Below, piece by piece: positions 6,061-26,891 of a DNA stretch of 34,345 nt (positions are counted from its first letter, which is position 1; the number at the start of each line of letters is the position of its first letter). The notes under the pieces are model-generated. The model was given only the letters and a program-made list of their open reading frames with translations. It had not been told where the DNA came from and made no database searches. This DNA is from Candidatus Methanoperedentaceae archaeon. Lineage in GTDB: Archaea > Halobacteriota > Methanosarcinia > Methanosarcinales > Methanoperedenaceae. The stretch covers positions 1-34,345 of the forward strand of contig PQAS01000013.1 of NCBI GenBank assembly GCA_003104905.1, read 5' to 3'. Both the position numbers and the translations under genes were made by a program.

Positions 6061-6077
6061 CTGGGGTCGCACCCCAG
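6061..6077. repeat. GC-rich perfect hairpin palindrome
   Basis: CTGGGGT-CGC-ACCCCAG forms a perfect 7-bp GC-rich stem with a three-base loop, set within a GC-rich patch (about 6041-6083) in otherwise AT-rich DNA. It lies about 40 bases downstream of the broken nucleotidyltransferase gene, so it may act as a transcript end or processing structure, or be the remnant of a mobile or REP-like element. Confidence 0.5.
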
Positions 6078-6118
6078 CGCCGTAAAGCTGAAAAAGACAA
6101 AACGCTTTAATGGTACGC

Positions 6119-6423: not shown

Positions 6424-7147
6424 CAGGCTTAACATCCACACACCCGAACCCCATCGCGTTCTTCTCACCAAGACCAGCCTCATAGGCGAACTTCAAAAGC
6501 TCAGGGCTTGCCTGGATTCGCAGGCTCATGAGATTGCAGCGCCTGTAGCCTTCTGATATTTTGATACGCTTTGGCTTGATGTCCGCAGTCTCAATTATAT
6601 CGAAATGATCAACGGGTGCTTTACCATAATATTCATTGAATCGTTCCACCAGATTCCTGTGGAGGTTCTCGTAGAACTTTGGCTCAGTCGGGTAAAGATC
6701 TATCTCACGAAGGTCTTCATTCTCCTTTCTCATGGTCTTAACATATATGGGCGAAAGGGTTTGGAACCAGCATTCATCACCAAATGAGACCTCTTGCAGT
6801 ATCTCAATGCGCTCGATCGCAAAATCCACCTTACCGCTGGGGCCATCCAGGTAGAATTCCGGTTTCTGGAGAAGCCCTTCGGCAAAACTTTTGATAAATC
6901 TATCGTCGGGTGAAGACAAAATAAAAAAAGCCCTCTCAAAACACAGGCCTGATTTGCCGGGTTTTCTATTCATCAGCATGAGATTTGAAAATGTGTAGAA
7001 TTTAAATCCCTGATGGGCATGTGTCTCATTAGCCAGCTTGATATCCGCATTTGCAAGTTTGAAGTAGAGCATAGAAGCTAAGCCATACTGATAATCGAAA
7101 TTAACAGGCAAGAGTGAAAGGTTTTTAACGGTTATTTTGCTTCTCAA
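6410..7147 (-). CDS. cas6: CRISPR pre-crRNA processing endoribonuclease Cas6
   Basis: Cas6 cuts the CRISPR transcript within each repeat and, in I-B systems, can stay bound to the crRNA 3' end. The 245-residue protein has the double-ferredoxin RAMP layout: an N-terminal region with candidate catalytic histidines H43 and H45 (ETHAHQGFKFYTFS), and the C-terminal glycine-rich loop GLGEKNAMGFGCV (225-237) typical of Cas6. The start is TTG at 7147 with GGAG eight bases upstream; a TATA-like ACTATAAATG sits about 45 bases further out. It is separated from the rest of the cas operon by about 0.85 kb, and its end overlaps the broken MNT gene. Confidence 0.9.
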   Translation of the reverse strand: MRSKITVKNLSLLPVNFDYQYGLASMLYFKLANADIKLANETHAHQGFKFYTFSNLMLMNRKPGKSGLCFERAFFILSSPDDRFIKSFAEGLLQKPEFYLDGPSGKVDFAIERIEILQEVSFGDECWFQTLSPIYVKTMRKENEDLREIDLYPTEPKFYENLHRNLVERFNEYYGKAPVDHFDIIETADIKPKRIKISEGYRRCNLMSLRIQASPELLKFAYEAGLGEKNAMGFGCVDVKPDGQR

Positions 7148-7254
7148 TTTAAATTCTCCATTTTATTTGAATTATTTCAATCCCTTATCATTTATAGTTG
7201 TATAGTTGTACTTTTTGTTTCTGTTGCTCCAAAAAACATACACCACATATCTGG

Positions 7255-7268
7255 AAAAGGATTTAAAC
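7255..7268 (+). promoter_or_regulatory. archaeal promoter of the flavoprotein-macrodomain operon
   Basis: AAAAGG (BRE-like) followed by ATTTAAAC at 7261-7268 is a good BRE/TATA pair. Transcription would begin near 7290, giving a leader of about 15 bases that contains GGGGTG just before the TTG start at 7305. cas6 diverges from the same 157-bp intergenic region. Confidence 0.5.
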
Positions 7269-7304
7269 CAATAAGCAAATACTTTCATTAAATGGGGTGT
7301 TCAA

Positions 7305-8726: not shown

Positions 8727-8731
8727 GATCG

Positions 8732-9301
8732 ATGACTATGATTGGAAATTCCCGAATACATCTCTCACTCGGAGATATCACAGAACAACGAACGGATGCG
8801 ATTGTCAATGCCGCGAATTCCACGCTTATGGGCGGAGGAGGTGTGGATGGCGCAATACACAGAAAAGGCGGCACTGAAATATTGGAAGAATGCAAAATCA
8901 TAAGAAAAACAAAATGGCCTGAAGGTCTTCCTACAGGGGAAGCTGTGGTGACAACAGGAGGGAGACTCAAAGCGAAAATGGTCATACATACGGTAGGCCC
9001 GATATGGAAAGGTGGAAATGAAAGAGAGCCTGAATTGCTTGCCAGTGCTTACAGGAATTGCCTTGCTCTTGCCCTTAAAATGAAAATAAGATCAATATCA
9101 TTTCCATCTATCAGTACAGGAGCTTACGGATATCCGATTGAGAAAGCAAGCAGGATTGCACTTTCGACTGTGTTTGGTTTCGCCAGGGAACATAATGGGA
9201 TCGATGAGGTGCATTTCGTATTGCACAGCCAGCATGATTTGATGATTTATGACGCTGCTTTAAAGGAAGTTGTTCAGACAGGATTTACAGGATTGGATTG
9301 A
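8732..9301 (+). CDS. macrodomain protein, probable ADP-ribose / O-acetyl-ADP-ribose hydrolase (YmdB-like)
   Basis: Macrodomains bind ADP-ribose, and this subgroup removes it from O-acetyl-ADP-ribose or from modified targets. The 189-residue protein is essentially one domain. Key elements are GDIT (14-17), VNAAN (25-29) with the catalytic asparagine, the GGGGVDGAIH loop (34-43) and SISTGAYGYP near 127-136, which binds the distal ribose and phosphates. It begins five bases after the flavoprotein gene; a second in-frame ATG lies two codons inside. The last residues (QTGFTGLD) are encoded by one arm of a perfect inverted repeat, so the natural C-terminus may have been altered by that element. Pairing with a lipoamide-dehydrogenase-like enzyme suggests a redox or lipoyl-linked ADP-ribosylation role (inference). 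Confidence 0.93.
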   Translation: MTMIGNSRIHLSLGDITEQRTDAIVNAANSTLMGGGGVDGAIHRKGGTEILEECKIIRKTKWPEGLPTGEAVVTTGGRLKAKMVIHTVGPIWKGGNEREPELLASAYRNCLALALKMKIRSISFPSISTGAYGYPIEKASRIALSTVFGFAREHNGIDEVHFVLHSQHDLMIYDAALKEVVQTGFTGLD

Positions 9302-9323
9302 AAAGTTATCCTGTAAATCCTGT
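9278..9323. repeat. perfect 16-bp inverted repeat, possible terminator
   Basis: ACAGGATTTACAGGAT at 9278-9293 is exactly complementary to ATCCTGTAAATCCTGT at 9308-9323, with a 14-base loop holding the macrodomain stop codon. Each arm itself contains a tandem ACAGGATT/ACAGGAT repeat. The sequence resembles the dispersed CAGGATTTACAGGATT family seen in several bacterial and archaeal genomes (from memory). It lies between two convergent transcripts and could end both. Confidence 0.7.
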
Positions 9324-9361
9324 TATTCTGTCGTACCTGCAATTTCCAATGAAAATTATTC

Positions 9362-10624
9362 CTACTTTGTGTCCAGAACTTTTTTCGCTTCAAGCCAATT
9401 TAAAATAACATAGGGAAGATATGCAATAGAAGTTCCGATAGAAGCTCCCACTGCACCATATCTCGGAATTAATATCAGGTTTAGGATAATGTTTAAAATC
9501 ATGGAAATTATCGAGTTAAATAATCTTTTTTTAGCCAATCCCTGGTAATCAAGGAACAGATTTAAAAATATTAGAAAAGAACGACTTACCAGGAATATTG
9601 TTAAAATTTGTAAAGGAAGGACCCCCCCTGCATATTTAGCACCATATACAAAAGGGACCAAAAACCCGGAGAATAATATGATACCTATCGTTATGCTTGC
9701 CATAAGCCATGTATTGATTTTCAGTATTTTATAAAATAACTGTTTTAATTCCTCCTTGTTCTCACTATTTATCTTTGCAAAAACAGGCATTGTACCCATT
9801 GCGATCGCAAGACTTATTTGAGGTACCGTATTAACGATATTTTTTCCAATTGCATAGATCCCTACTTCATAATTTGAAGAATATAGTCCAAGCATTACTG
9901 TATCTATTTCAGTTGCTATTACAGATCCAATACTTGTGAAGAATAAAGGAATAGCATATTTAACAATATCCAATACGGATGTTTTATTTGTTGAACGTTC
10001 AATCTTTATATAAAACTTAAAATATAACAGCGATAAACCAATTACAATCGTTAGAAATGAAGCCAGACTAAAGGCATTGACTATATTGATCAAACTTTTT
10101 GAAAATTGAAACAAAAGAATAACAAAACTGAATTTAAATCCAAATTCCAAAACATTGACCACAAAATTATATTTTATTCTATGCAGCCCCCCAAAAGCAG
10201 TTTTCAAATATTCTAAAAATCCCATCGAAAAAATCAGAGGAGCAGAATATTTCAAAAGAATTTCAAATTCAGGGTAGCCAACTAAAACGCTTATTATTCC
10301 GGAACTAAAAAAGACCATAAGCGCAAAAAAAGTACTTATCACCAGTCTTAGCTTAAAACTATTTCTAATTACATTTTTTAATTCGTCTGTGCTGTTATGC
10401 TGTGCGATAAATTTTCCGGAAGCATTAATTCCAAACATTGAAATTAAAAAAATTCCGGAAATAATTGCAAACAGAAAAGACCATAAGCCAAAATCTTCAA
10501 CCCCAAGTATTCTTGCCAGGAATATATTGAGTGCCATAAATAAAACAAAAGATACTCCCTTTGTTGCAAAGCCCCAGAGGGTTTCTTTAATTAATTTATT
10601 CTTTAGAAGATTATAAAGGCTCAT
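9362..10624 (-). CDS. Wzx-like oligosaccharide flippase (MOP superfamily)
   Basis: The 420-residue protein is almost wholly hydrophobic, with about 12 predicted membrane helices, and opens with LIKETLWGFATKGVSFVLFM and FLARILGVEDFGLWSFLF, the classic N-terminus of polysaccharide biosynthesis / Wzx proteins. Such proteins flip lipid-linked oligosaccharides across the cytoplasmic membrane. It starts one base after the stop of the three-domain kinase-like gene and is the last gene of the minus-strand glycan operon (15788 to 9362). The substrate cannot be read from the sequence. Confidence 0.88.
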   Translation of the reverse strand: MSLYNLLKNKLIKETLWGFATKGVSFVLFMALNIFLARILGVEDFGLWSFLFAIISGIFLISMFGINASGKFIAQHNSTDELKNVIRNSFKLRLVISTFFALMVFFSSGIISVLVGYPEFEILLKYSAPLIFSMGFLEYLKTAFGGLHRIKYNFVVNVLEFGFKFSFVILLFQFSKSLINIVNAFSLASFLTIVIGLSLLYFKFYIKIERSTNKTSVLDIVKYAIPLFFTSIGSVIATEIDTVMLGLYSSNYEVGIYAIGKNIVNTVPQISLAIAMGTMPVFAKINSENKEELKQLFYKILKINTWLMASITIGIILFSGFLVPFVYGAKYAGGVLPLQILTIFLVSRSFLIFLNLFLDYQGLAKKRLFNSIISMILNIILNLILIPRYGAVGASIGTSIAYLPYVILNWLEAKKVLDTK

Positions 10625-10625
10625 T

Positions 10626-12629
10626 TTATGTAGAGGGATGTTTGATTGCTAATAAATGTTGGTAATGCATCTCAAATGATTTTATTTTTGATATATCGAA
10701 CATAGCAAATTTTTCGATCAGTTCCTTGTTTTCATTTCCAAAGTAATCACTGATCAACCTTCTCAATAAGATAAATTTATCATAATCTTTGTCGAAAACA
10801 TGTGAATCAGCATAGTCTATAACATATATATTATTTTGATAACAATATATATTATCGGGAGTTAGATCTCCATGTATCAAGACCATTTGATTTTTGTATA
10901 ACAAATCTAAAGAAGTGCAAATTTTTTTATATAGATCAATTATTTCTGAAAAATTGAGTGCTCCTGATCTTATTTGTGTCGCCAGGTTTGGGGCAGTAAT
11001 GAATTCATATCGTATTTGTTCATTTCCTGTGATATTATACTCCGGAAATTTAATAGAAGATTCATTGAAATAATATTTTTGTAAAAAATCTCTCTCCTTT
11101 TCAAATGAATCTTTGTCAGAAAAAGTCTTAATTATGTGATAACTGTCATGGTCTTTATATAACTCTATGGTGCATGGCCAGCTTCCTCCACCGGTTCTCT
11201 TTATCAGGAAATTCTCATCCGGGCATTTCCTCGATGGGAGAAGATCGGTTATTCTTAGAGTGAAACATAGTTTTAAAATTTTCAGGAAAAATCGATCCAT
11301 AACAAAAAAGATTTTCTTGATTGAGTTTATTTTGAATCGCGGCCTGAATAAAAAATATGAGTAAAACAGTGAAAATGCCTCCGCGTCGTTTCTTACTATA
11401 TATTTATTTTTTTTGAGGACTAAAAAGGTGTCGGATCCCTTTTTCAGAGAAGTATTTTTAGAGAAACTCTGGTAAATATATGTATTGGTAAGCTTTATGC
11501 AGGTGAAAATATCGTTTTCATAGGTGTCAATGATTATTGGTTTCAGATAATTTTTGGAATAAATCAACTCTTTCAATAACTTTATTTTCTCCATACTTAT
11601 TTCTTTCTTTCGTTCATAAAGCACATTGTTTGGCGCATCAAGCAGGATAAATAAATCTGGTTTTGGGACAAGAGATATTAATAAAGTCTCCCATATATGA
11701 TTTTTTGAACGGACAATAGAATCATAAAAATATCTGTCAAATAAGATAATTTCTGTATTCCTGTTCAATATGCTTTTCAAATATCTACTATAAAGTTCAA
11801 TAAATATAATAATGTTCTCAAATAAAGCGATCCTCTTGACGGAATCCGTAATAGATCTTTTTGTATCCTTATCTGTATGTTTATATTTGAAATGCCTGTA
11901 AACCCTTATTGGCCACAAATAAAAATCGTGCCAACCCATATAAGTGGTCTTTACATTGAATACGCCGGACAATTCTTTTTCCAGCTCCCTGATCAAAGTG
12001 GTTTTTCCTGCACCGTCTATACCCATAATAACAACAATTAATTTTCTATTTAATTGTCTGAACTTGAAGATCTTCTTTTTGATATGATAAATTGCATAAT
12101 TATATAATTTTTTTCTAATAAGTTTAGATCTTATTTTTTTGGTGTCGTTGATCTCTTCCTGTTTGACGCTAAAATGTTTGAGTTCACTTAATAGGAACGT
12201 TGTTGGTTGAATATTATTTTCCAGATAGGAAAATGTTCTTTTGCTTTTCCATGGAAAAAAGAGATACCCCAAATATCTATCTAAATATATATATTCATCT
12301 CCAAGAACAAAAATGCCATCAGTCTTCATTCTGGAAGATTTCCTTAGTTTCGGAAGTGATAAACTTACAACATTGCAGTAATCCAATCCGTCGACAATAA
12401 AATCAATTTTTATGAAGCTTTGATTGATCGTATCAAAACGAACATATATAAAATGGTTATTATAAGTTGAAGGATTTATCAGTTTGTAATTTGATGGAAA
12501 ATTAATACCAGCAAACTCAGGTTTGGAAATTAGGATATCAACATCCTTATCCTTCAGGGAAATTTCGTGCTTGATAAAAAGTTCCTTGAGATATAATTCG
12601 TTTTTTATTTTATTTAATAACTCCATCAT
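10626..12629 (-). CDS. three-domain protein: NTase-like, thymidylate-kinase-like P-loop kinase, APH/Bud32-like kinase
   Basis: I do not know a named protein with this layout. Residues about 1-160 look like a nucleotidyltransferase fold: KDKDVDILIS gives D29/D31 and KIDFIVD gives D76, the expected third acidic residue. Residues about 195-390 match the thymidylate kinase family: P-loop GIDGAGKTT (203-211), DRYFYD at 298-303, and PDLFILLDAP with a basic lid (YERKKE). Residues about 480-667 resemble small-molecule or LPS kinases: a candidate ATP lysine K501, catalytic HGDLTPDN (586-593) and metal-binding DYAD (605-608). All three active sites look intact. It lies inside the glycosyltransferase operon, two bases after the GT4 stop with GGTG upstream, so it probably phosphorylates or activates a sugar, lipid or glycan intermediate (inference). 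A second ATG follows the first directly. Confidence 0.75.
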   Translation of the reverse strand: MMELLNKIKNELYLKELFIKHEISLKDKDVDILISKPEFAGINFPSNYKLINPSTYNNHFIYVRFDTINQSFIKIDFIVDGLDYCNVVSLSLPKLRKSSRMKTDGIFVLGDEYIYLDRYLGYLFFPWKSKRTFSYLENNIQPTTFLLSELKHFSVKQEEINDTKKIRSKLIRKKLYNYAIYHIKKKIFKFRQLNRKLIVVIMGIDGAGKTTLIRELEKELSGVFNVKTTYMGWHDFYLWPIRVYRHFKYKHTDKDTKRSITDSVKRIALFENIIIFIELYSRYLKSILNRNTEIILFDRYFYDSIVRSKNHIWETLLISLVPKPDLFILLDAPNNVLYERKKEISMEKIKLLKELIYSKNYLKPIIIDTYENDIFTCIKLTNTYIYQSFSKNTSLKKGSDTFLVLKKNKYIVRNDAEAFSLFYSYFLFRPRFKINSIKKIFFVMDRFFLKILKLCFTLRITDLLPSRKCPDENFLIKRTGGGSWPCTIELYKDHDSYHIIKTFSDKDSFEKERDFLQKYYFNESSIKFPEYNITGNEQIRYEFITAPNLATQIRSGALNFSEIIDLYKKICTSLDLLYKNQMVLIHGDLTPDNIYCYQNNIYVIDYADSHVFDKDYDKFILLRRLISDYFGNENKELIEKFAMFDISKIKSFEMHYQHLLAIKHPST

Positions 12630-12631
12630 TT

Positions 12632-13732
12632 CTATTTGTGCACCTGTTCCTTCAAGCTACAATATATTGATTCCAATGTCATTAAGTATTTTTCCAAAGA
12701 ATAATTTCCAGCAGATTTCAAACCATTTTCAATTATTTCTCTCCTCAAATCTTCATTATGATATAGTAATTCTATTTTTTTTGCCAGTTCTTTTTGATTT
12801 TTTGGTTCAAACAAAAAACCGGTTTTAGCGTCTAAAACAACTTCATTTAATCCCTCCACGTTCGAAGAGATAACCGGGACTCCTGTAGCATGGGCTTCCA
12901 GGGCAACAATACCAAAAGGCTCCCAGTGGGATGGAATCACAAAGCAATCAATGATTGAATAGAACCATCTGATATCCGGAATATATCCGAGAAATAAAAT
13001 ATTTCGTTCTAATCCTAATTTATGGGCTAATTTCATATTCTTCTCTTTCTCAGGCCCATTTCCGGTAATTAGCAACTTTATATTTTCAAAGTGTTTCAGT
13101 TCTCCCACGGCAAAAATTAAATCCTGGCATCCCTTTCTTTCTATATGCCTCCCTGCAAAACCAAGAACAAAATCATTATCATTCAGGCCAAGTTTTCTTC
13201 GTTCTTCTTGCCTGTTTGTTTTTTGCGGACTGAAATAATCCAGATCCACAAAATTTAACAAAACTTTTATTTCATCTTCCTTAACTCCTGCATTTTCGAT
13301 AAGCTGTTTCTCTGTTGCTTTTGAAATAGCTATATAAAGATCAACTTTGCCACGTGTTCTTTTGATAAACTGCCTGTACCACCAGCGATTCTGGAAAATA
13401 CTTCCGTGTTCATGAAAAATGAGTATTATATTCTTAAAAAAAAATAATTTTAATAAGTATCCAAAAAACATGGACTTCTGCAAATGACAGTGCAGAATAT
13501 CAATATTATGCTCTTTTACAAGAGTCCGCAATTCAAAAAGGGATGTGATGTTGAATTTAGAAGAACCTGCATGTGAATATACATTGGGGTGATCCACTTC
13601 AACCCGGATTTCATTATTCCTCAGTGAATAACAAAAAATGTTTTTATTGTTTGTCTTCTTTTCAAAAATTCCTTTTATTATTGTCTGGGCACCCCCCATA
13701 CCCAGGTGATCAATAATATGTAGAATTTTCAT
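12632..13732 (-). CDS. GT4-family glycosyltransferase
   Basis: This 366-residue GT-B enzyme has the GT4 N-terminal glycine-rich loop (IIDHLGMGGAQTII, about 6-19), a HEHG segment near 108, GFAGRHIERKG at 191-201 starting the nucleotide-sugar domain, and the EX7E pair E271/E279 in HWEPFGIVALEA. It would transfer a sugar with retention of configuration from a nucleotide donor to a lipid-linked or growing glycan on the cytoplasmic face. It overlaps the upstream GT4 gene by four bases (ATGA). Donor and acceptor cannot be inferred. Confidence 0.9.
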   Translation of the reverse strand: MKILHIIDHLGMGGAQTIIKGIFEKKTNNKNIFCYSLRNNEIRVEVDHPNVYSHAGSSKFNITSLFELRTLVKEHNIDILHCHLQKSMFFGYLLKLFFFKNIILIFHEHGSIFQNRWWYRQFIKRTRGKVDLYIAISKATEKQLIENAGVKEDEIKVLLNFVDLDYFSPQKTNRQEERRKLGLNDNDFVLGFAGRHIERKGCQDLIFAVGELKHFENIKLLITGNGPEKEKNMKLAHKLGLERNILFLGYIPDIRWFYSIIDCFVIPSHWEPFGIVALEAHATGVPVISSNVEGLNEVVLDAKTGFLFEPKNQKELAKKIELLYHNEDLRREIIENGLKSAGNYSLEKYLMTLESIYCSLKEQVHK

Positions 13733-14856
13733 TTCAATATCACATCTTCATAAACCTTCAAATAGGATTCTCCGACCGCTTTCCAATCCATCAACTCAGC
13801 AATTTTCCGGCTCTTCATATTCATCCGCTTTCTTTCGTCCGGATAATCCATAAGCCTGCGAATTGCCTCTACAATCGCATCAGAATCCCCCATCGGCACA
13901 ATGATACCATTTCCATCAACAAGCTCCACTGTCCCGCCGGTATTAGTAACAATAACCGTAAGACCTGATGCCATACCCTCAAGTAAAGCATTGCTCATAC
14001 CTTCATTAAGTGACGGCAGAACAAAAACATCACTTTCTTTATAAATATCGGCTATATTATCGTGGGAAATATAACCTTTAAAATCAACTATATTGGAAAT
14101 ACCAAGATCCTGCGCCAATTTCTTCAACTCTTCTTCTTGATTTCCTTCTCCTACGAGAACCAATTTGATATTTTTATCTCTTAATTTTCCAATAGCTTCG
14201 ATCAAATACTTGATCCCCTTTCTTTCAATCAACCTTGAGACGCATACGATCCTTAGCCCATTTCCATCTTTGGTTCTATTAATATCCGGTCTAAATTCCG
14301 ATACATCAATTCCATTATAAATAACGCTAATTTCCTGATCCGGTGAAGTTAACAAAGCAAGCTCCCTCAATCCTTTACTGTTTGCAATCACTGCCCCTGC
14401 CCTATTCCAGATAGATTTTATGATGGGTTTTAAAAATACGTATTCGAAACCGAATCTTTCATTAAATCCTGGTACATCGGAGCCTCTCAAGGAAACAATA
14501 TACGGGATTTTTTTCCTAAACAAATAGGCAATTGCTCCGCATGGAATACCGAAGAAGGCATGGCAAACGTCATACTCTTTTTCGTCCATCAATTTCTTAA
14601 TAAATTTATTCGCTTTCCAGCTATAGGTAATTATCTCTCGTTGCGTCCAGTAATGAATATCTTTTTTATTAATAGGCAGTTTATAAATGTTAACAGTATC
14701 CCCAATTTTTTCCATTTCAAATGTGTTAGAAGAAGAGGAAGTTACAACATCTACTTCAAGATCCTTATTTGCAAATTCTTTTAATATATATTTACAGGCA
14801 TTGCTCCCGCCTCCTCCAAGCGGAGGATACTCATTATTCAGCATCAGTATTCTCAT
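13729..14856 (-). CDS. GT4-family glycosyltransferase
   Basis: A second retaining GT-B glycosyltransferase of 375 residues. The N-terminal motif NNEYPPLGGGGSNA (7-20) is followed by a VSLRGSDVPG loop, VSRLIERKG (206-214) and EX7E residues E285/E293 in SLNEGMSNALLEGMASG. It overlaps the GT2 gene upstream and the GT4 gene downstream by four bases each, consistent with one tightly coupled operon. It is only distantly similar by eye to the neighbouring GT4, so each probably adds a different sugar. Confidence 0.9.
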   Translation of the reverse strand: MRILMLNNEYPPLGGGGSNACKYILKEFANKDLEVDVVTSSSSNTFEMEKIGDTVNIYKLPINKKDIHYWTQREIITYSWKANKFIKKLMDEKEYDVCHAFFGIPCGAIAYLFRKKIPYIVSLRGSDVPGFNERFGFEYVFLKPIIKSIWNRAGAVIANSKGLRELALLTSPDQEISVIYNGIDVSEFRPDINRTKDGNGLRIVCVSRLIERKGIKYLIEAIGKLRDKNIKLVLVGEGNQEEELKKLAQDLGISNIVDFKGYISHDNIADIYKESDVFVLPSLNEGMSNALLEGMASGLTVIVTNTGGTVELVDGNGIIVPMGDSDAIVEAIRRLMDYPDERKRMNMKSRKIAELMDWKAVGESYLKVYEDVILK

Positions 14857-15788
14857 TCGAAAACCTTTTCAGTCAAATAGTTCTTTCTCTCATTCTGCCC
14901 ATAATAAACCTTGAGCATAATATCCGCGAGAATCCCCGATACTATAAATTGTACACCGATGATTATCATCAAAACAGCCAATAAGAACAGAGGCCTGTCA
15001 GAAAGACTCTTCTCTAAGAACAGCCTCTCAAATCCCAAATATCCGCCTATAAGTGTTCCTGAGATGCCCAGCAGCAGCCCCAATCCTCCAAAAACATGAA
15101 TGGGTCTGACTGAGTATTTCTGCCAGAAGCTTATGACTATCAGGTCAAGGAAACCCTTCCCGATTCTAAGCAAACCATATTTGGTTTTACCGTATTTCCT
15201 GGAGTGGTGTTTAACTTTTTCCTCGCCTATCTTGTAGCCCCTCCACAGCAGCATTGCGGGGATGTACCTGTGGATTTCTCCATACAGATCCAGACCCTTT
15301 ACGCATCCGATCTTGTATGCCCTGAAAGTGCATCCTGAATCATGTATTACCTCACCTGTGGTCATTTTCCTTAGAAAATTCGCAAATTTGGATGTAAATT
15401 TCTTGGAAATAGTGTCTTTTCTATCAGCGCGCCATCCACAAACCACATCATAATCTTCATTCTCGATCTTTTCGACGAGCTTTGGAATATCCGCTGGATC
15501 GTTCTGCAGATCACCATCCATGCTGATAACAATATTCCCCTGAGCAAGGTCAAATCCGGCCTTTAGGGCTGCGGTTTGTCCGAAGTTCTTCCTGAACTTT
15601 ATTATTTTGACCTTATTATCTTTCTCACGAACCTTCAGCATGTTCTTGAAGGTGTTGTCTGTGGAACCATCGTCTATGAAAATGATAATATATTCCCGGT
15701 TCATTTTTTTCAATGTATCGCTCAATTCAGAATGCAGAATCTCTATATTTTCTTCCTCATTGTAAAAAGGAACTACTATGGATATCAT
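14853..15788 (-). CDS. GT2 polyprenyl-phosphate glycosyltransferase (DPM/GtrB/ArnC-like)
   Basis: GT2 enzymes of this group load one sugar onto a polyprenyl or dolichyl phosphate carrier. The 311-residue protein has SIVVPFYNEEENI at the start, IIFIDDGSTDNT with D39/D40, SMDGDLQNDP with D91/D93, and a C-terminal pair of membrane helices (about 230-295) typical of GtrB/ArnC. It is the first gene of the minus-strand glycan operon. The ATG at 15788 follows AAGGTGG at a good distance. The lipid-linked sugar could feed glycans that the Wzx-like protein exports. Confidence 0.9.
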   Translation of the reverse strand: MISIVVPFYNEEENIEILHSELSDTLKKMNREYIIIFIDDGSTDNTFKNMLKVREKDNKVKIIKFRKNFGQTAALKAGFDLAQGNIVISMDGDLQNDPADIPKLVEKIENEDYDVVCGWRADRKDTISKKFTSKFANFLRKMTTGEVIHDSGCTFRAYKIGCVKGLDLYGEIHRYIPAMLLWRGYKIGEEKVKHHSRKYGKTKYGLLRIGKGFLDLIVISFWQKYSVRPIHVFGGLGLLLGISGTLIGGYLGFERLFLEKSLSDRPLFLLAVLMIIIGVQFIVSGILADIMLKVYYGQNERKNYLTEKVFE

Positions 15789-16093
15789 TTAGTGCCACCT
15801 TATGCCAATTTAAAAAATTTTCTATGAACTCCGGGTTCATAATCGTTCAGATTCAAGATCATAAATAACCTGTATAACATTCGTTCTACAATGCGCGTTA
15901 GTATATATATATTTACTCAAACACATAAATAAATAATAATGATGCTACGTATCATGTTGATTATATCAGGCAGATTCGGGCAATATTATCCGGAACAGAA
16001 AAAAAATCTAATGTTATGCAACAGTCTCCTCCTAAAAAATAAATATATATATTTGTATATCAGTTTAACCTAAGATTCCAGCGGTATACTTGA
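15789..16093. promoter_or_regulatory. divergent intergenic region, glycan operon versus DUF1616 gene
   Basis: This AT-rich 305-bp region separates divergent transcripts and contains no gene that I can support. For the plus strand, TAAATATATATATTTG at about 16040-16055 is a TATA box placing transcription start near 16075, shortly before ATG 16094. For the minus strand, TTATTTATG (about 15860-15868) or the longer ATATATATATTTA stretch (about 15902-15914) could serve the GT2 gene at 15788. Confidence 0.4.
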
Positions 16094-16957
16094 ATGAAAA
16101 AAAAATATAAATTTCCTTTAGATTTATTAGTTATGCTCATATGGGCAGTTCTCACTCTTATCTTTGTTAATAATCCTTTTTTGAGTGAGACTTTTATAAC
16201 AGTAGTTTTGGGCATACCTGTGTTCCTATTCATACCGGGGTATGTCCTGCTAGCAGTATTGTTGCCAGGAAAGAATGAGCTCGAAGGAATAGAACGTTTA
16301 GCATTGAGTTTCAGCTTGAGCATATCTTCAGTACCCCTACTTGGTTTATTATTGAATTTTACTTTCAAAACGAGACTTTTAACGATATTACTGACACTTT
16401 GTCTTTTTTCAATAATATTTATTTTCTTTGCCGCAATCAGGCAGGGAAGAATTCCCGAAGATGAAAGATTCTCTTTACCTTTCGATTTGGTTCATAAAAT
16501 TATTATGGAAGAATTCAATGCGTCAAAAGGCAAATCAGAAAAGGTCCTGGCATGGATACTTATTTTGTCGATAGTTATGGCGATTGGACTGATGATTTTT
16601 GTAATAACCACGCCAAAAATAGGTGAAAAATTCACGGAATTTTATATCCTGGGCTCGAATGGGAAAGCTGAAAATTACCCGACACAGTTAAAATATGGTT
16701 CAAATGTTGATGTTCTTGTAGGTGTGATAAATCATGAATATGCCAGGGTGAACTATACAGTAAAAGTGGCACTTGACACACAAATTTTAAGCCAGACCAG
16801 TTTCTACCTGGATAACGGTACCACATGGGAAAATTACATCTCCTTTGTGCCTGACAAAGTAGGCAATGAAATGGAGCTTGAATTCTGGCTTTTCAAAGAT
16901 GATGATTTTGCATCACCTTATCGTGATCTGCACCTGTGGGTGAATGTTAACCAATGA
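16094..16957 (+). CDS. DUF1616-family membrane protein
   Basis: The N-terminal half of this 287-residue protein has about four to five membrane helices with the family's look (VLGIPVFLFIPGYVLLAVLLPG, then a second pair, about residues 10-120), a helix near 155-178, and a C-terminal extracytoplasmic beta-rich domain (about 180-287, with YARVNYTVKVAL and WENYISFVPDKVG). DUF1616 proteins are common in archaea and have no established reaction; the exposed domain suggests a cell-surface or secretion role. The gene overlaps the CPBP protease gene by ATGA and lies beside archaeosortase genes, so involvement in surface-protein maturation is plausible but inferred. Confidence 0.82.
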   Translation: MKKKYKFPLDLLVMLIWAVLTLIFVNNPFLSETFITVVLGIPVFLFIPGYVLLAVLLPGKNELEGIERLALSFSLSISSVPLLGLLLNFTFKTRLLTILLTLCLFSIIFIFFAAIRQGRIPEDERFSLPFDLVHKIIMEEFNASKGKSEKVLAWILILSIVMAIGLMIFVITTPKIGEKFTEFYILGSNGKAENYPTQLKYGSNVDVLVGVINHEYARVNYTVKVALDTQILSQTSFYLDNGTTWENYISFVPDKVGNEMELEFWLFKDDDFASPYRDLHLWVNVNQ

Positions 16958-17952: not shown

Positions 17953-18747
17953 TCAATTCTTTAGTCTGATACCCGCAAAAATGATGCCAATGGGTATAAG
18001 TATTCCCATTGCTATGGCCACTTTGCCTAAATTTCCATAAGTATTCATGATATTTTCTGCTGCTGTAATGTTCTCCTTGCCCACCTGATCATACATAGTT
18101 CTGAATAAATTATCTTCCACAAAACCTGTGATCAAATTATATGTGTCTGTCTCATTTGTGATAACAGGAGAAGTTATACGGATCATGGCAACCGAATCTT
18201 TTGCCCCTAATTTCTTGAACATGAACCAGTAAACCATTATTTGTTTTTGATCTTTTTTACTGTAATCAAGTCTATTAGCGCGCAATTTTGCAAAAAGATT
18301 TGTGGAATCTCCTATTTTGAACTCAGCTGTGCTCTCATTATTTATTTTCCAGCCTGCCCCTTCTACACAAATTCTCTGCTTATGAAAACTTTCTCCAACC
18401 TTGCTATTGATGATGTCCATCCAGACCAGATTCTCATCATTATTTGTATATGTCCTGCTCAGAAGCACATCTGCTTTTAAGAGTTTATAAACTCCATCAG
18501 GATATCTAAAATCAGAACCTTTCCATTCTCCGATCGTTTTTGGAAATGCTGCCACTTCTTCATTATTATTGAAGTCATATGATGTTTTCAGCATCAAGCG
18601 ATTCCCGCTTTCACGCCAGTATTCGGTATCTGCAACGGTATAATCCGAAATATCCTCCTGGGATAGCAATAATATGGAAACATATGAAAGCAGTAATATG
18701 CCTATCATTATTAAAAGATTTTTTTGAACTGCAGCCGTCCGAAACAC
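17953..18747 (-). CDS. EpsI-domain protein associated with exosortase/archaeosortase
   Basis: EpsI-domain proteins are encoded with, or fused to, exosortases; their exact role is unclear. The 264-residue protein has an N-terminal helix (about 10-30), an extracytoplasmic domain with the EpsI hallmarks FPKTIGEWKGSDF (about 69-81), LLSRTYTN, a conserved cysteine in QRICVEGAGWKI, and VYWFMFK, and a C-terminal helix (AIAMGILIPIGIIFAGIRL). The chosen start is GTG 18747 with GGTGG just upstream, which overlaps the archaeosortase end by 37 bases; ATG 18708 (residue 14) is the alternative. Position directly after the archaeosortase supports the assignment. Confidence 0.85.
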   Translation of the reverse strand: MFRTAAVQKNLLIMIGILLLSYVSILLLSQEDISDYTVADTEYWRESGNRLMLKTSYDFNNNEEVAAFPKTIGEWKGSDFRYPDGVYKLLKADVLLSRTYTNNDENLVWMDIINSKVGESFHKQRICVEGAGWKINNESTAEFKIGDSTNLFAKLRANRLDYSKKDQKQIMVYWFMFKKLGAKDSVAMIRITSPVITNETDTYNLITGFVEDNLFRTMYDQVGKENITAAENIMNTYGNLGKVAIAMGILIPIGIIFAGIRLKN

Positions 18748-19526
18748 CTCCCCACCAGGAATAAAGATATCAAGGAAAGGCTGAAAAAAAGAAGACTTGA
18801 GATATCATGGAAATAATTCATTGCAGCCGTCTGTCCATATACAGTTGCAACTGCCAATACTGATGTGATCCTGAGAATATTTCCTGCCATAGCAAGAGGT
18901 ATTGTGAAAGCCAGTATGGTTAACTTCATTGTTCTACTACCTTCCAGAATTAAGGCAAAAAGGGCTCCGATCATTGACAACGATATTATGGAATTTATAC
19001 CGCTGCAGGTAATTCCTACCTCAAATGACCCTTCAGGAATTGTAATGACCAGCCCTTCTAACCTGGCAGGTATTCCGATGAGATTAGCTATATTTGTAGA
19101 AGCAAATGCTGATAAAGTCTGGGCAGGAGATGCTATGATGTCCACAAAAGGAAATGGTATCATAAATAGCAGGAAAAGGAATGGGAATTTGATTTTTTTC
19201 ATGAAATCCCATCCAAACACATATATTATGACACCGGCGAGGGTCAAAATAAAAGATATACCTGACAGGAATCTTATCGTCCATATCCCGCTGATCACCT
19301 GAAGAACTATTCCTGATATAAAAAGCCACAGACCTCCCTGTGATGTTTTCTTTTCAACAGATGCAAGAATATATCTCATATTCCATATCATATATCCTGA
19401 AACGAGAGGTACTATGAATCCATGGGAATAATATTCATTATACATCCACGACTCAATCATCCATCCAATTGTATTATAATAGAAAACTCCTATTATACCT
19501 ATAAATACAATTAAAAGATAATTCAT
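18711..19526 (-). CDS. archaeosortase/exosortase-family transpeptidase
   Basis: These multi-helix membrane enzymes cleave C-terminal sorting signals of surface proteins and attach them to lipid. From ATG 19526 the protein has 271 residues and about eight helices. The catalytic triad is visible: C174 in GITCSGINS, R219 in GNILRITS, and H240 in NYFHDISS. The frame is open up to GTG 19655, 43 codons upstream and inside the GT2 gene. I prefer 19526 because family members begin at the first membrane helix, AAGGTT precedes the ATG, and a TATA box (19566-19573) lies upstream. No PGF-CTERM-like target was recognised in the window; the repeat protein at the right edge ends without one. Confidence 0.88.
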   Translation of the reverse strand: MNYLLIVFIGIIGVFYYNTIGWMIESWMYNEYYSHGFIVPLVSGYMIWNMRYILASVEKKTSQGGLWLFISGIVLQVISGIWTIRFLSGISFILTLAGVIIYVFGWDFMKKIKFPFLFLLFMIPFPFVDIIASPAQTLSAFASTNIANLIGIPARLEGLVITIPEGSFEVGITCSGINSIISLSMIGALFALILEGSRTMKLTILAFTIPLAMAGNILRITSVLAVATVYGQTAAMNYFHDISSLLFFSLSLISLFLVGRCFGRLQFKKIF

Positions 19527-19565
19527 TTCAAGAACCTTTTTTATACCATGTTTAATATGGTTTAT

Positions 19566-19573
19566 TATATAAA
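19566..19573 (-). promoter_or_regulatory. internal TATA box ahead of the archaeosortase gene
   Basis: Minus strand ATTTATATAATA is a strong TATA-like sequence in the short gap between the GT2 stop (19609) and ATG 19526. Predicted initiation near 19543 would leave a leader of about 17 bases containing AAGGTT. It may be a chance match in AT-rich DNA. Confidence 0.35.
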
Positions 19574-19608
19574 TATGTTGGGGGATAATATCTCTAAAAA
19601 TATGTATT

Positions 19609-20514
19609 TTATGGAATTCCTCTGCTTTTTGCATTTTTTGACTTATTGTTTTCACTGATCAACCTTGACACCGAATGCAGTATGATGCCTGTGAAGGCCA
19701 TGAAGACCCCTAATAGTGTCAAAACTATCATGAAAAGCATTGGCCAAAATCTCAAGGTCTCTCCCATAAAAAAATCTTTTAGAATTTCCAATCCAAGCCC
19801 CATGCCAATAATAGTGCACACCATTCCGGGAATTGTCAAATAATACAGCGGCCTGCACAGTTCTATATCTTCAAGCATCCTTACCATGGTCTTAAGAATA
19901 TGGTTCCCATTGTTCTGTGTTGCGCACTCAACACTTGGTTTCACTCCTATCTCTATCTCTTTAACCCTCAATCCGGCATTAGCAGCATCATTTAACATAT
20001 CGTTGCCTGTAGTGTTCCCGTTCGATTTGAATTTGAATGCGGTCAGCGTATGTCTGGCAAATGCCTGAATTCCGCTTTGCGTGTCGGATAATCTTGTATT
20101 AGAATTTAGAACAATATCAAGACTGTATTTCTCTTTGAACTGATAAAAATGTGATTTTTTTCTATTATTCACATGCCAGCTGCCGTTTACAACGTCTGCT
20201 TCTCCTTTGAGTATGGGATTTATGAGGATCGGGATATAATCGGGATTATGCTCACCGTCAAAATCCATAGTTACAATGACTTTCGCTCCATTTCGTCCGA
20301 CATATTCAAAACCGGATTTAAGCGCTGCACCTTTTCCCATTTTCCTGGTATGCCGGATCACTTTTGCTCCGGCAAGTTTTGCCATCTCTCCTGTCCGGTC
20401 AGAGCTTCCATCATCTATTACTATTACATTGTCAACATGTTTCTTTGTCTGAAGTACTATAGTACCGATGTGTACTTCCTTGTTATAAGCCGGTAGAATC
20501 GCTGTTATTGTCAT
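19609..20514 (-). CDS. GT2 glycosyltransferase with C-terminal membrane helices (dolichyl-phosphate sugar synthase-like)
   Basis: The 301-residue protein has the DPM-type GT2 domain: ILPAYNKEVHIG at the start, VIDDGSSDRTGE (D34/D35) and TMDFDGEHNPDYI (D84/D86). Two membrane helices follow, at about residues 222-240 and 252-275. It is likely to transfer a sugar to a polyprenyl phosphate at the membrane. It precedes the archaeosortase gene, and exosortase loci commonly include such glycosyltransferases. The start ATG 20514 has AAGGTT eight bases upstream. Confidence 0.88.
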   Translation of the reverse strand: MTITAILPAYNKEVHIGTIVLQTKKHVDNVIVIDDGSSDRTGEMAKLAGAKVIRHTRKMGKGAALKSGFEYVGRNGAKVIVTMDFDGEHNPDYIPILINPILKGEADVVNGSWHVNNRKKSHFYQFKEKYSLDIVLNSNTRLSDTQSGIQAFARHTLTAFKFKSNGNTTGNDMLNDAANAGLRVKEIEIGVKPSVECATQNNGNHILKTMVRMLEDIELCRPLYYLTIPGMVCTIIGMGLGLEILKDFFMGETLRFWPMLFMIVLTLLGVFMAFTGIILHSVSRLISENNKSKNAKSRGIP

Positions 20515-22690: not shown

Positions 22691-23230
22691 ATGAAAATTC
22701 TCACCCATGTTTGCTGTGCTCCATGCTTCACATACCCGCACAAAAGAATGCTGGAGGAAGGGCATGATGTAACCGCTTTCTTTTATAATCCCAATATCCA
22801 TCCCTACCAGGAATATAAAAATCGCCTGGTATCTCTGGAAAAATATGTGGAACTAAAAGGAACAAAAGTAATTTACGATAATGATTACAACATAGAAAAC
22901 TACCTGCGCCAGGCACTTGCTGCAGAAGAACGATGCGAATTCTGCTATAAAGAGAGACTTAATAAGACTGCAAAAATTGCAGGACAGCTGGATTTTGATG
23001 CTTTTACGACCACGCTTCTCATTTCTCCATACCAGAAACATGAGGTAATTCTCAAGACAGGGAAAAAAATTGCAGCTGAATCCGGGATAGAGTTCTATTA
23101 TGAGGATTTCAGGGAAGGATACCGGGAATCTCGTGATATATCAAAGACTCTTGAACTTTTTATGCAAAAATATTGCGGATGCATCTTTAGTGAAAAAGAG
23201 CGGTATTTCAGGAAGAAACCGCAGTTTTAA
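22691..23230 (+). CDS. queH: QueH-family epoxyqueuosine reductase (DUF208)
   Basis: QueH reduces epoxyqueuosine to queuosine in tRNA, replacing the cobalamin enzyme QueG, and uses an Fe-S cluster. The 179-residue protein has the family's cysteine layout: C8-C9-x2-C12 (HVCCAPC), C82-x2-C85 (CEFC) and a C-terminal C162-x-C164 (YCGC). It also has FYNPNIHPYQEY and TTTLLISPYQKH, both characteristic of the family. By analogy the CC and CxxC residues ligate the cluster. Archaea usually make archaeosine rather than queuosine, so the actual substrate here is uncertain. Confidence 0.88.
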   Translation: MKILTHVCCAPCFTYPHKRMLEEGHDVTAFFYNPNIHPYQEYKNRLVSLEKYVELKGTKVIYDNDYNIENYLRQALAAEERCEFCYKERLNKTAKIAGQLDFDAFTTTLLISPYQKHEVILKTGKKIAAESGIEFYYEDFREGYRESRDISKTLELFMQKYCGCIFSEKERYFRKKPQF

Positions 23231-23256: not shown

Positions 23257-24153
23257 ATGAAGATACTTCTGGCTGAGTATGCTGTGGGTGCAGGCATCGA
23301 GGAATTCATGCTAGAGGGAAAAGCTATGCTTCATACTCTTGTGAAAAGTTTCATAGCATGCGGCCATGAGGTAATGTATCCTTCCAGGGGCATAAAACTT
23401 GACGCTGGGAAGGCTGTCATGACGACCGGATTTGAGGGGACGCTCATCGAATTGTCAAAAAAGTGTGATGCTGCTTTAGTTATTGCGCCTGATGAACTTC
23501 TCGGAGATATGACCGAAATAATAGAGAAAAATACACATAATCTCGGCTGCCCTTCCGATTCGATACGTCTTTGTGCAGATAAATTGGAGTGTACTTTAGC
23601 TCTTTCTCATGCGAACATACCAGTTCCTGAAACCATAGGGAAAGGGGAATACGAAGGTGATTTCGTTATAAAACCACGATTTGGATGTGCTTCGGAAGGT
23701 ATACAAAGAAGAAATAAAGGCAAATTGAAAGCGGGTTTTATTGCCACGGAATTCATAGAAGGGGAACACCTGAGTGTAAGTTTGATAACAGGGAAAACAC
23801 AGCTTCCACTTACAGTTAACAGGCAGTTGATCGAAGCAGGGGAGAATTTTTCTTACAAAGGAGGAATAGTTCCCTATCATTGTGAAAGGAATGACGAGAT
23901 AATAGATGTAGCAAAAAGAACCGCCCTGGTACTGGGGTGCCGGGGTTACGCTGGTGTGGATATTGTGCTTGGTGATAAGCCGTATGTAATAGATGTCAAT
24001 CCCAGACCAACATCATCAGTAATAGGTATATCAAGAGTGATGAAGGCTCAAATTGCTGACCTGATATTAAGATCAAGATTCGGGGATCTTCCCGATCATG
24101 TGGAAATAAATGGCAGTTTTACTTTTACTAAAGAGGATCTATCTGGATTTTAA
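23257..24153 (+). CDS. mfnD: ATP-grasp ligase, probable tyramine-L-glutamate ligase of methanofuran synthesis
   Basis: The 298-residue protein is an ATP-grasp enzyme: FVIKPRFGCASEGI (about 132-145) provides the ATP-binding lysine, FIEGEHLSVSLI the grasp strand, and VIDVNPRPTSSVIG (about 248-261) the metal-binding Asn/Asp set. Size, the N-terminus MKILLAEYAVGAGIEEFM and overall pattern resemble archaeal MfnD, which joins tyramine to glutamate when building methanofuran. Methanofuran is needed in methanogens and methane oxidisers. No other mfn gene lies beside it, so the specificity is moderately supported; a different ATP-grasp ligase is possible. No Shine-Dalgarno is evident, but a TATA-like TTTTAATATTTATC lies just upstream, suggesting a nearly leaderless mRNA. 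Its end overlaps the opposite gene by 15 bases. Confidence 0.68.
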   Translation: MKILLAEYAVGAGIEEFMLEGKAMLHTLVKSFIACGHEVMYPSRGIKLDAGKAVMTTGFEGTLIELSKKCDAALVIAPDELLGDMTEIIEKNTHNLGCPSDSIRLCADKLECTLALSHANIPVPETIGKGEYEGDFVIKPRFGCASEGIQRRNKGKLKAGFIATEFIEGEHLSVSLITGKTQLPLTVNRQLIEAGENFSYKGGIVPYHCERNDEIIDVAKRTALVLGCRGYAGVDIVLGDKPYVIDVNPRPTSSVIGISRVMKAQIADLILRSRFGDLPDHVEINGSFTFTKEDLSGF

Positions 24154-25209: not shown

Positions 25210-25896
25210 TCAGCGATAATAAATTAACGCTCCCAGAGCGTTCACGATCTGGGGCTCATCAGGTACCAGTATTTCTGTCTGGAGGATATCCTCAAGCGCT
25301 GATAACATTCCTTTATTCTTTACTGTTCCCCCGATCAGGACAAGTGTTTGTGCATCAGGTATCATAAACGAGATCCTTCTCGCAAATGCATAATGCATCC
25401 CCGCGATAACTTCTTCAGGAGTGAAACCCGTTACAAGCTGTGAGATCATCTCTGAAAGTGCAAATACCGCGCAAGTGTTATTTATCGCAGGGAGCCGCTT
25501 AGCCCTGCTGTGGAATGAACCCAGTTCTTTTAACTCAATCTTGAAATAATTTGCCACGAACTCAAGAAAAGCGCCTGTGCCTGCGCTGCATTTGTCATTT
25601 ATTATGAAATTATTTCTTTTGACATCGATGACCTTTGTGTCCTGCCCCCCTATATCCACAATCACATCCGCATCAGGAAAGTAATGCCTGACTCCATAGA
25701 TCGCAGCCGTAATCTCTGTTACAGAGGCGCGGTGCGGGGCTGAATTTCGAAAATACCCCGTAGAAATAATATCATTGCCTTCAATTCCTGTTATCAGGTC
25801 TTTCCAATTGTGGGTCCCTGTTATCTGATATTTTATTTCCCCATCTTCAATTGAAACTTTTTTTGCAGCGGTACTGCCCACATCAAGTCCTATCAT
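25210..25896 (-). CDS. BcrA/HgdC-type activator ATPase of a 2-hydroxyacyl-CoA dehydratase-like system
   Basis: This ASKHA-fold ATPase (228 residues) uses ATP hydrolysis to inject a low-potential electron into its partner. Visible motifs are IGLDVGSTAAK (2-12), VDIGGQDTKVI (80-90), and the two cysteines that hold the dimer-bridging [4Fe-4S] cluster: C103 in NDKCSAGTGAFLE and C142 in NTCAVFALSEM. LVLIGGTVKNKGM closes the nucleotide site. It overlaps the partner gene by ATGA, giving a two-gene operon. The protein is a little shorter than the usual 250-270 residues but lacks no motif. Confidence 0.92.
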   Translation of the reverse strand: MIGLDVGSTAAKKVSIEDGEIKYQITGTHNWKDLITGIEGNDIISTGYFRNSAPHRASVTEITAAIYGVRHYFPDADVIVDIGGQDTKVIDVKRNNFIINDKCSAGTGAFLEFVANYFKIELKELGSFHSRAKRLPAINNTCAVFALSEMISQLVTGFTPEEVIAGMHYAFARRISFMIPDAQTLVLIGGTVKNKGMLSALEDILQTEILVPDEPQIVNALGALIYYR

Positions 25897-26837
25897 GTCC
25901 TGTCAAGCGCCTCCCTGAAAGCTTCAAGCCTCAATTTTATCTGCTCAGGCGTTTTACCAGGAAGGTCTCCCTGGATTGTCAGCATGGGATAATCAAGCTT
26001 TGACCTCATAATCTCATCTTCAAGCATGTGATGGCAGGCAAACTGTGTATAATGTATCACTCCGTTGACGTGTCTTTTTTCAAGTTCCTTTTGAAGAAAT
26101 CTTATCCTGAAATCAAGCGGTCGCGCAAAAGTGTAGTCGCAGTAATCACGGGCAATATTATGAATATCAGTACCTGAGTGCCTGAGAAATTCAAAGGGGA
26201 GTTCATCAAATACTATCTGAAGGTGCAGTGATTGGGCAACATCATGGAAATCATGATATATCGGAGGTACCCCAATTAATGCGACCCTGTTATTCATTTC
26301 AACTTTTTGCTCTTTGAGCGAGGAAATGGCTTTCCTGAATACATCAAGATCACCCATCAGGTCGGAAAAAGAGATCATTATACGAAAAACATCCCCTGAA
26401 GAGAGCTTACCTTGTGCCCTTTTTTTGTCAATTTTTTTTCCGATTTCTTTTAATTCCTTTATTTCCCCCGGTTTTTCCGGGGAACCCATTGTTCCCAGAA
26501 AATCAACGAGTTTATACAATTGTGATTCCAGATATTCGTGATCCCCATCGAAAGGGTAAAAGAAAAAATGAGTGGGGACCCCGCTCATTTCAACTTTTTG
26601 CCCATCTACAAGCGCATTATGGCAATCCCCTCCTGCTACTACGATAAGAGAGTCCAGCTTGAGCTCTCTTTTTGAAAGCATCTCCTGCCAGATGGCGGTC
26701 CAGGCGCATAATTTGTTCCTGGGGTATTTTTTTGAGCCGGGGATGACATTATTGACATCAAAAGGCGAACACCTGCACGCAAATATTAATTCCGGTGGGA
26801 CAAGAGCAGTTAAACCAATCTTTTTTTGCACAGGCAT
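25893..26837 (-). CDS. HgdB/BcrC-family dehydratase-like subunit, possibly double-cubane cluster protein
   Basis: The 314-residue protein belongs to the 2-hydroxyglutaryl-CoA dehydratase D-component family (FACRCSPFDVNNVIPG, NKLCAWTAIWQ, VAGGDCHNA, VNGVIHYTQFACHH). Counted from the longer TTG start it has exactly six cysteines: 22, 24, 45, 73, 234 and 269. Only one such subunit is encoded, next to its activator, whereas CoA dehydratases and benzoyl-CoA reductases use two or more. One subunit plus one ATPase matches the layout of double-cubane cluster proteins, where six cysteines would bind an [8Fe-9S] centre (family knowledge; assignment here inferred). I chose ATG 26837 over the preceding TTG. 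Confidence 0.85.
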   Translation of the reverse strand: MPVQKKIGLTALVPPELIFACRCSPFDVNNVIPGSKKYPRNKLCAWTAIWQEMLSKRELKLDSLIVVAGGDCHNALVDGQKVEMSGVPTHFFFYPFDGDHEYLESQLYKLVDFLGTMGSPEKPGEIKELKEIGKKIDKKRAQGKLSSGDVFRIMISFSDLMGDLDVFRKAISSLKEQKVEMNNRVALIGVPPIYHDFHDVAQSLHLQIVFDELPFEFLRHSGTDIHNIARDYCDYTFARPLDFRIRFLQKELEKRHVNGVIHYTQFACHHMLEDEIMRSKLDYPMLTIQGDLPGKTPEQIKLRLEAFREALDRT

Positions 26838-26891
26838 CAAATGTATTCTCAGGTAATTTATATTTTTGTATGATCCACTACTGACCTATTC

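What the first reader, a model, noticed from the sequence alone, without database searches (positions are those of the whole stretch)
25210..26837. Minimal two-gene ATP-driven low-potential reductase, candidate double-cubane system
A single HgdB/BcrC-like subunit with exactly six cysteines is fused by ATGA to its activator ATPase with the two cluster cysteines intact. A double-cubane [8Fe-9S] cluster needs six cysteine ligands, so the count fits. No CoA-ligase or CoA-transferase gene is nearby, arguing against a CoA-ester dehydratase. The substrate could be small and novel.
Basis: partly seen in the sequence, partly recalled or inferred. Interest (0 to 1): 0.6.

Follow-up and report, generated by a model that had tools for sequence, protein, structure and literature searches.

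The report
Single-cubane ATP-driven reductase pair, not double-cubane
Methane-eating Methanoperedens archaea and some of their relatives carry a strictly paired two-gene enzyme that probably uses ATP to push electrons onto a simple iron-sulphur cluster; its sequence argues strongly against the exotic double-cubane cluster that was suggested, but it is a distinct, apparently undescribed branch of that enzyme family.

Summary
The two genes are real: an HGD-D (HgdB/HadC-like) protein, 314 aa, and its BcrA/HgdC-type activator, 228 aa, overlapping by ATGA. The window is from Ca. Methanoperedens. The double-cubane reading fails. Of the six cysteines only four are invariant in 49 homologues (C21, C44, C72, C268). 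Three match the HAD-type [4Fe-4S] ligands; the other three [8Fe-9S] ligand positions shared by DCCP and BzdN hold no cysteine. The protein scores 29 bits against the curated double-cubane model (cut-off 350); the same genome's true DCCP, at another locus, scores 503. By tree it is its own 100/100 clade on a very long branch, outside DCCP and outside the beta/gamma subunits of two-subunit enzymes.

It is the only HGD-D protein in several genomes, lacks the N-terminal helix of the CoA-channel bundle, and all 51 carriers among 238 genomes also have the activator, even where the genes are unlinked. It is near-universal in Methanoperedenaceae, present in ANME-2a-type and Ethanoperedens-like genomes and one Methanosarcinaceae, absent from ANME-2c. 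Best explanation: homodimeric, single-cubane, ATP-driven radical enzyme on a small non-CoA metabolite. Substrate unknown.

The parts
25893..26837 (-). HGD-D (HgdB/HadC/DCCP-fold) catalytic protein, 314 aa; ORF extends to a TTG at 26840
   Evidence: PF06050 83 bits; AlphaFold model mean pLDDT 81.4, pTM 0.81; best Foldseek matches HadC 3o3n_B E 2.4e-12, DCCP 6eno E 1.1e-9
25210..25896 (-). Activator ATPase (HgdC/HadI/BcrA-D family), 228 aa, overlaps the first gene by ATGA
   Evidence: TIGR00241 173 bits over the 125 cut-off; PDB 4eht activator of 2-hydroxyisocaproyl-CoA dehydratase E 7e-41
25893..25896 (-). ATGA stop/start overlap
   Evidence: Sequence; the -4 overlap is in 32 of 45 larger homologous loci counted
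26706..26708 (-). Codon of C44, predicted cluster ligand 1 (aligns with NxC-P of DCCP and FAC of HadC)
   Evidence: Invariant 49/49; joint alignment
26622..26624 (-). Codon of C72 (GGDCHNALVDGQ), predicted cluster ligand 2
   Evidence: Invariant 49/49; aligns with ETTC of DCCP and QSC of BzdN
26034..26036 (-). Codon of C268 (QFACHH), predicted cluster ligand 3
   Evidence: Invariant 49/49; aligns with QFC of DCCP and KFC of HadC/BzdN
26775..26777 (-). Codon of C21 (PPELIFAC), family-specific invariant cysteine at a position that is not Cys in the other proteins aligned; fourth ligand or active-site thiol
   Evidence: Invariant 49/49; alignment
26769..26771 (-). Codon of C23, not conserved (Cys in 5/49)
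26139..26141 (-). Codon of C233, not conserved (Cys in 28/49)
25588..25590 (-). Activator C103, cluster cysteine
   Evidence: Invariant 47/47
25471..25473 (-). Activator C142, cluster cysteine
   Evidence: Invariant 47/47
26855..26867 (-). TATA-like AAAAATATAAATT about 20-30 nt before the ATG, compatible with an archaeal promoter and a nearly leaderless message
   Evidence: Read from the sequence; inference only

Best explanation
A two-component, ATP-driven radical enzyme of the BCR/HAD family in which one HGD-D protein, most likely as a homodimer, carries a single site-differentiated [4Fe-4S] cluster per subunit, held by C44, C72 and C268. The fourth iron is open to water or substrate, or is approached by the extra invariant cysteine C21. 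The activator dimer holds its own [4Fe-4S] through C103 and C142, takes an electron from ferredoxin (inferred) and, driven by ATP (inferred from the family), injects it below about -600 mV. The substrate is a small polar molecule without CoA. Because no double cubane is present to store several electrons, I favour one-electron, HAD-like radical elimination or dehydration with recycling of the electron over multi-electron reduction. Shown: gene pair, fold, cysteine pattern, strict co-occurrence, absence of another HGD-D protein in several genomes. Inferred: cluster type, homodimer, electron flow, CoA independence, reaction type.
For: Fold: closest solved structure is HadC, then the DCCP and BCR subunits. 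Cysteines: the ligand set keeps the three positions left in HadC and lacks the three extra positions of the double cubane. Activator intact and closest to the HAD activator in the PDB. No other HGD-D protein in G015, G034, G036, G046, G058, G158, so no HGD-D partner subunit exists there. All 51 genomes with the full-length protein, among the 238 of the class, also have the activator orthologue, also where the genes are unlinked on different contigs (G015, G024). CoA: the model starts with a strand at residues 7-9 and has no N-terminal helix; in BzdNO that helix completes the four-helix bundle that helps form the CoA channel (PMC11971306).
Against: Homodimer, cluster type and reaction are not tested. 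The three helices of the middle domain are still present, so a CoA-like tail is not excluded. A partner outside PF06050 is possible.
Confidence: 0.6

Rival explanations
1. Double-cubane cluster reductase (DCCP-like): six cysteines hold one [8Fe-9S] cluster that reduces small molecules.
For: Single subunit plus activator, like DCCP and E. coli YjiM/YjiL; six cysteines in this copy; similar fold (DCCP 6eno E 1.1e-9); the C-terminal part matches DCCP best in sequence searches.
Against: Only four cysteines are invariant and three of the six DCC ligand positions have none; double_cubane model 29 of 350 bits; outside the DCCP clade, AU p 0.025 against a joint clade; the genome already has a true DCCP at 503 bits.
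Confidence: 0.05
2. Net ATP-driven reductase: the same single-cubane homodimer, but electrons end up in the product (two successive one-electron transfers), as in benzoyl-CoA reductase.
For: Same protein evidence as the best explanation. On the midpoint-rooted tree the family lies on the side of the branch with catalytic-type subunits (91/98).
Against: In benzoyl-CoA reductase the storage of two electrons is attributed to the double cubane (PMC11971306), which is missing here; the tree position is on a very long branch.
Confidence: 0.25
3. Ordinary CoA-ester dehydratase or aryl-CoA reductase whose partner genes lie elsewhere.
For: Family name; some Methanoperedens genomes (G021) hold many other HGD-D proteins.
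Against: Several genomes have no other HGD-D protein; no N-terminal helix of the CoA bundle; no CoA ligase or transferase recognised nearby; not in the two-subunit clades.
Confidence: 0.08
4. Not a metabolic enzyme but a maturation or repair factor (an ATP-driven one-electron donor for another metalloprotein or cofactor).
For: Near-universal in Methanoperedenaceae with varying gene neighbours, which suits housekeeping; activator-type ATPases also serve in cofactor activation in methanogens (own knowledge of methanogenesis marker 15, not tested).
Against: Absent from ANME-2c and nearly all Methanosarcinaceae, which share MCR and most cofactors; no partner suggested by the neighbourhood.
Confidence: 0.12

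Closest known systems
2-Hydroxyisocaproyl-CoA dehydratase HadBC + activator HadI (and HgdAB/HgdC)
   Same: Fold (best Foldseek match HadC), three-cysteine single-cubane ligand set, activator family
   Different: One HGD-D protein instead of two subunits; 314 aa, no N-terminal helix; extra invariant C21; no CoA-handling genes nearby; separate deep clade
Double-cubane cluster protein DCCP/DCCP-R (6eno, 7yyl; E. coli YjiM/YjiL)
   Same: Single HGD-D protein with one activator; shared fold; C-terminal sequence similarity
   Different: Lacks three of the six [8Fe-9S] ligand positions, about 100 residues shorter, outside the DCCP clade, 29 bits against the 350-bit model
Class I benzoyl-CoA reductases BzdNOPQ, MbdNOPQ, BcrABCD
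   Same: Fold and ATP-driven activator; BzdO also has a three-cysteine [4Fe-4S]
   Different: Those have two different HGD-D subunits, a CoA substrate, and in BzdN a double cubane
Methanogenesis marker 15 (Mmp15)
   Same: Activator-type ATPase domain
   Different: Window activator scores 77 bits against a cut-off of 456; the carriers have a separate longer activator-type protein as well, probably Mmp15 (identity inferred)
TudS thiouridine desulfidase
   Same: Distant relative; reported as one domain of the family with a [4Fe-5S] cluster (PMC11971306)
   Different: One domain only; not aligned here

Membership tests
BCR/HAD superfamily (HGD-D protein with CoA_E_activ activator) | PF06050 over its cut-off, with the HAD/BCR fold | tested here: met
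   83 bits against 28.4; Foldseek to HadC, DCCP, BCR
BCR/HAD superfamily (HGD-D protein with CoA_E_activ activator) | Cognate activator ATPase with two cluster cysteines | tested here: met
   173 bits against 125; C103 and C142 invariant
Double-cubane cluster protein (DCCP) | Six cysteine ligands for [8Fe-9S] at the positions shared by DCCP and BzdN | tested here: not met
   Only 3 of 6 positions hold Cys in the family; ligand positions inferred from cysteines common to the two proteins with a solved double cubane
Double-cubane cluster protein (DCCP) | NCBIfam NF040772 over its cut-off | tested here: not met
   29 of 350 bits
Double-cubane cluster protein (DCCP) | Falls in the DCCP clade | tested here: not met
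   Own clade 100/100; joint clade disfavoured, AU p 0.025, long branch
Double-cubane cluster protein (DCCP) | One double cubane per monomer of a homodimer | not testable with these tools
   Needs protein
Two-subunit 2-hydroxyacyl-CoA dehydratase / class I BCR | Two different HGD-D subunits | tested here: not met
   Only HGD-D protein in G015, G034, G036, G046, G058, G158
Two-subunit 2-hydroxyacyl-CoA dehydratase / class I BCR | CoA-binding channel with complete four-helix bundle | tested here: inconclusive
   N-terminal helix missing in the model, three middle helices present
Two-subunit 2-hydroxyacyl-CoA dehydratase / class I BCR | Three-cysteine [4Fe-4S] ligand set | tested here: met
   C44, C72, C268 at the aligned positions; the cluster itself was not tested
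Methanogenesis marker 15 | TIGR03286 over its cut-off | tested here: not met
   77 of 456 bits

The most novel reading that the evidence does not exclude
A new class within the BCR/HAD family: a homodimeric, CoA-independent, single-[4Fe-4S] radical enzyme with a fourth invariant cysteine at the active site, doing an undescribed reaction in the core metabolism of ANME-2a/b and ANME-2d methanotrophs and thermophilic ethane oxidisers.
Probability: 0.4. Interest if true: 0.65.

Novelty: new variant of a known kind. Interest (0 to 1): 0.42.

Why it matters
The members of this family with an assigned ATP-driven function that I know of use CoA esters and two different HGD-D subunits, and the single-subunit DCCPs carry a double cubane. 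A single-subunit, single-cubane version would separate ATP-driven electron injection from both features. The BzdNO study (PMC11971306) names restriction to CoA esters as the current limit of enzymatic Birch reduction. The narrow distribution, near-universal in Methanoperedenaceae, points to a function particular to some anaerobic alkane oxidisers that no paper found here describes. It also gives a clear correction: counting cysteines in one sequence is not enough to call a double cubane.

Tried and rejected
Double cubane: rejected by cysteine conservation, ligand alignment, curated model and tree. Function from neighbours: 48 loci compared, no gene travels with the pair; neighbours differ between lineages, many of them convergent or ordinary housekeeping genes. 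Aromatic degradation: one survey of ANME genomes found CoA ligases but no BCR (PMC10581246), and the pair occurs in genomes with no other HGD-D protein. The large ANME comparative study does not mention activase, BadF or CoA reductase (PMC9012536). IMG/VR: no homologue. The all-genome scan found only Methanoperedens-type records, but it uses short exact patterns and missed the 55-60% relatives of other families, so absence outside the phylum is not shown. A profile-profile alignment against DCCPs misaligned the N-terminal half; the joint MAFFT alignment was used instead. The two original DCCP papers (PMC9351452, PMC5866592) are not held, so ligand positions rest on the alignment and on the BzdNO paper.

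Full report
On the minus strand at 25893-26837 (TTG possible at 26840) lies a 314-aa HGD-D protein, followed by a 228-aa activator at 25210-25896; the two share ATGA. Pfam and NCBIfam place them as HGD-D (83 bits) and CoA_E_activ (173 bits, cut-off 125). The window belongs to a Ca. Methanoperedens genome: the nearest named records are Methanoperedens MAGs at 72-93% identity.

The count of six cysteines is right, but it does not survive comparison. Among 49 distinct homologues, C21, C44, C72 and C268 (314-aa numbering; one search prints them one higher) are invariant, while C23 is Cys in 5 and C233 in 28. I aligned the family with DCCPs (including the sequence of 6eno), BzdN, MbdN, HadC and archaeal two-subunit proteins. 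BzdN and DCCP both have solved [8Fe-9S] clusters, in BzdN with the six further irons held by cysteines (PMC11971306). They share six cysteine positions in the alignment: before YxPEE, NxC-P, ETTC/QSC, EExC-G, NCAC/AC and QFC. I take these as the six ligands, by inference, because the original DCCP papers are not held. The window family keeps the second, third and sixth (C44, C72, C268), the three that HadC also keeps. The other three positions are T or A, L or P (DELP), and a gap. C21 is an additional, family-specific invariant cysteine. The curated double-cubane model gives 29 bits against a cut-off of 350.

The same genome has a genuine DCCP at another locus (L081, G000 contig C57): 503 bits to the double-cubane model and 407 bits to 6eno. 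The window pair is therefore not that genome's double-cubane system.

Structure. AlphaFold from 29 sequences gave mean pLDDT 81.4 and pTM 0.81, with low confidence at 43-45 around ligand C44. Foldseek against the PDB returned only this family below E 0.001: HadC first (E 2.4e-12, TM 0.76 by query length), then MbdN, DCCP (E 1.1e-9 for 6eno, TM 0.76) and others. The model begins with a strand and lacks the N-terminal helix. In BzdNO that helix completes a four-helix bundle that helps form the CoA channel. This argues, without proving, that the substrate is not a CoA ester.

Tree. With 72 sequences the family is one clade at 100/100 on a branch of 2.4 changes per site. It lies outside the DCCP clade (100/94) and outside the group of HadC/BzdN-type subunits. 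On the midpoint-rooted drawing it falls on the side of the alpha-type catalytic subunits at 91/98. Forcing it together with DCCPs costs 14.5 log units, AU p 0.025.

Distribution and linkage. Among 238 genomes of the class, the full-length protein is in 51 and the orthologous activator in 52. All 51 have both, and the extra one (G025) has a partial activator in an 81%-complete genome. Carriers: 32 of 34 Methanoperedenaceae genomes; 16 of family f2; 2 genomes of family f4; and one of family f5 (G158, one genome of the family taken to be Methanosarcinaceae). Family f3 has none. Two f2 genomes carry the target of a probe I recall as ANME-2a-647, and six of nine f3 genomes that of ANME-2c-760; reversed control patterns gave nothing. 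The probe sequences are from memory; one hit of each kind was checked and lies in an archaeal SSU rRNA. The closed f4 genome, 1,922,745 bases, matches the 1.92 Mb reported for Ca. Ethanoperedens (PMC7175092). So the pair marks ANME-2d, ANME-2a-type and Ethanoperedens-like archaea, but not ANME-2c. In the wider phylum sample no other full-length member was found. In G015 and G024 the two genes are on different contigs and both are kept, which is good evidence that they work together. In G015, G034, G036, G046, G058 and G158 this is the only HGD-D protein of the genome, so no second HGD-D subunit can be involved there. The ATGA overlap is in 32 of 45 larger homologous loci counted.

Function. 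Neighbours give no clue: across 48 loci no gene travels with the pair. I commit to an ATP-driven radical enzyme with one [4Fe-4S] per subunit. The activator passes an electron to the cluster held by C44, C72 and C268; the fourth iron, near invariant polar residues (D27-x-N29-N30, H73, H269, H270) and perhaps C21, binds a small polar substrate. In the BzdNO work the double cubane is proposed to store the electrons for reduction, while HAD enzymes, which have only single cubanes, do a formally redox-neutral elimination. The absence of a double cubane therefore tips me towards elimination or dehydration with a recycled electron. The substrate is unknown.

Verdict: the gene pair is real and unusual, the double-cubane claim is contradicted by sequence, and what remains is a distinct single-cubane branch of the BCR/HAD family restricted, as far as could be searched, to part of the Methanosarcinales.

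Noticed in passing
L081 (G000:C57:60000-79000), 2140-16938: The same genome's true DCCP (8740-10116, 503 bits) and activator sit among a CooS-type CO dehydrogenase, two divergent nitrogenase-like (NifDK/NifEN-like, all below curated cut-offs) proteins and several ABC transporters with substrate-binding proteins. A better place to look for a double-cubane system, possibly with nitrogenase-like chemistry.
   Followed up: partly
L207 (G158:C1:3194000-3212000), 2436-10227: In the only family-f5 genome with the pair, it lies directly behind a large P-loop-like protein, a PglZ-like protein and a HerA-like ATPase, resembling a defence island; suggests horizontal arrival. Identities judged by eye.
   Followed up: no
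window 22691-23230: QueH (epoxyqueuosine reductase, 199 bits) in an archaeon; archaea normally make archaeosine rather than queuosine.
   Followed up: no
window 23257-24153: ATP-grasp ligase resembling MfnD (tyramine-glutamate ligase) but far below the family cut-off (132 of 400 bits).
   Followed up: no
G021 contigs C30 and C36 (loci L175, L176, L178-L182): This Methanoperedens genome has nine HGD-D matches, several of them adjacent pairs like BCR subunits, unlike its relatives; may degrade aromatics.
   Followed up: no
window 332-7147: A CRISPR-Cas type I gene set (Cas3-like helicase, Cas5/Cas7-like and Cas6-like ORFs, judged by eye) on the minus strand.
   Followed up: no
window 18711-19655: Exosortase/archaeosortase-like membrane protein amid glycosyltransferases (judged by eye).
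   Followed up: no
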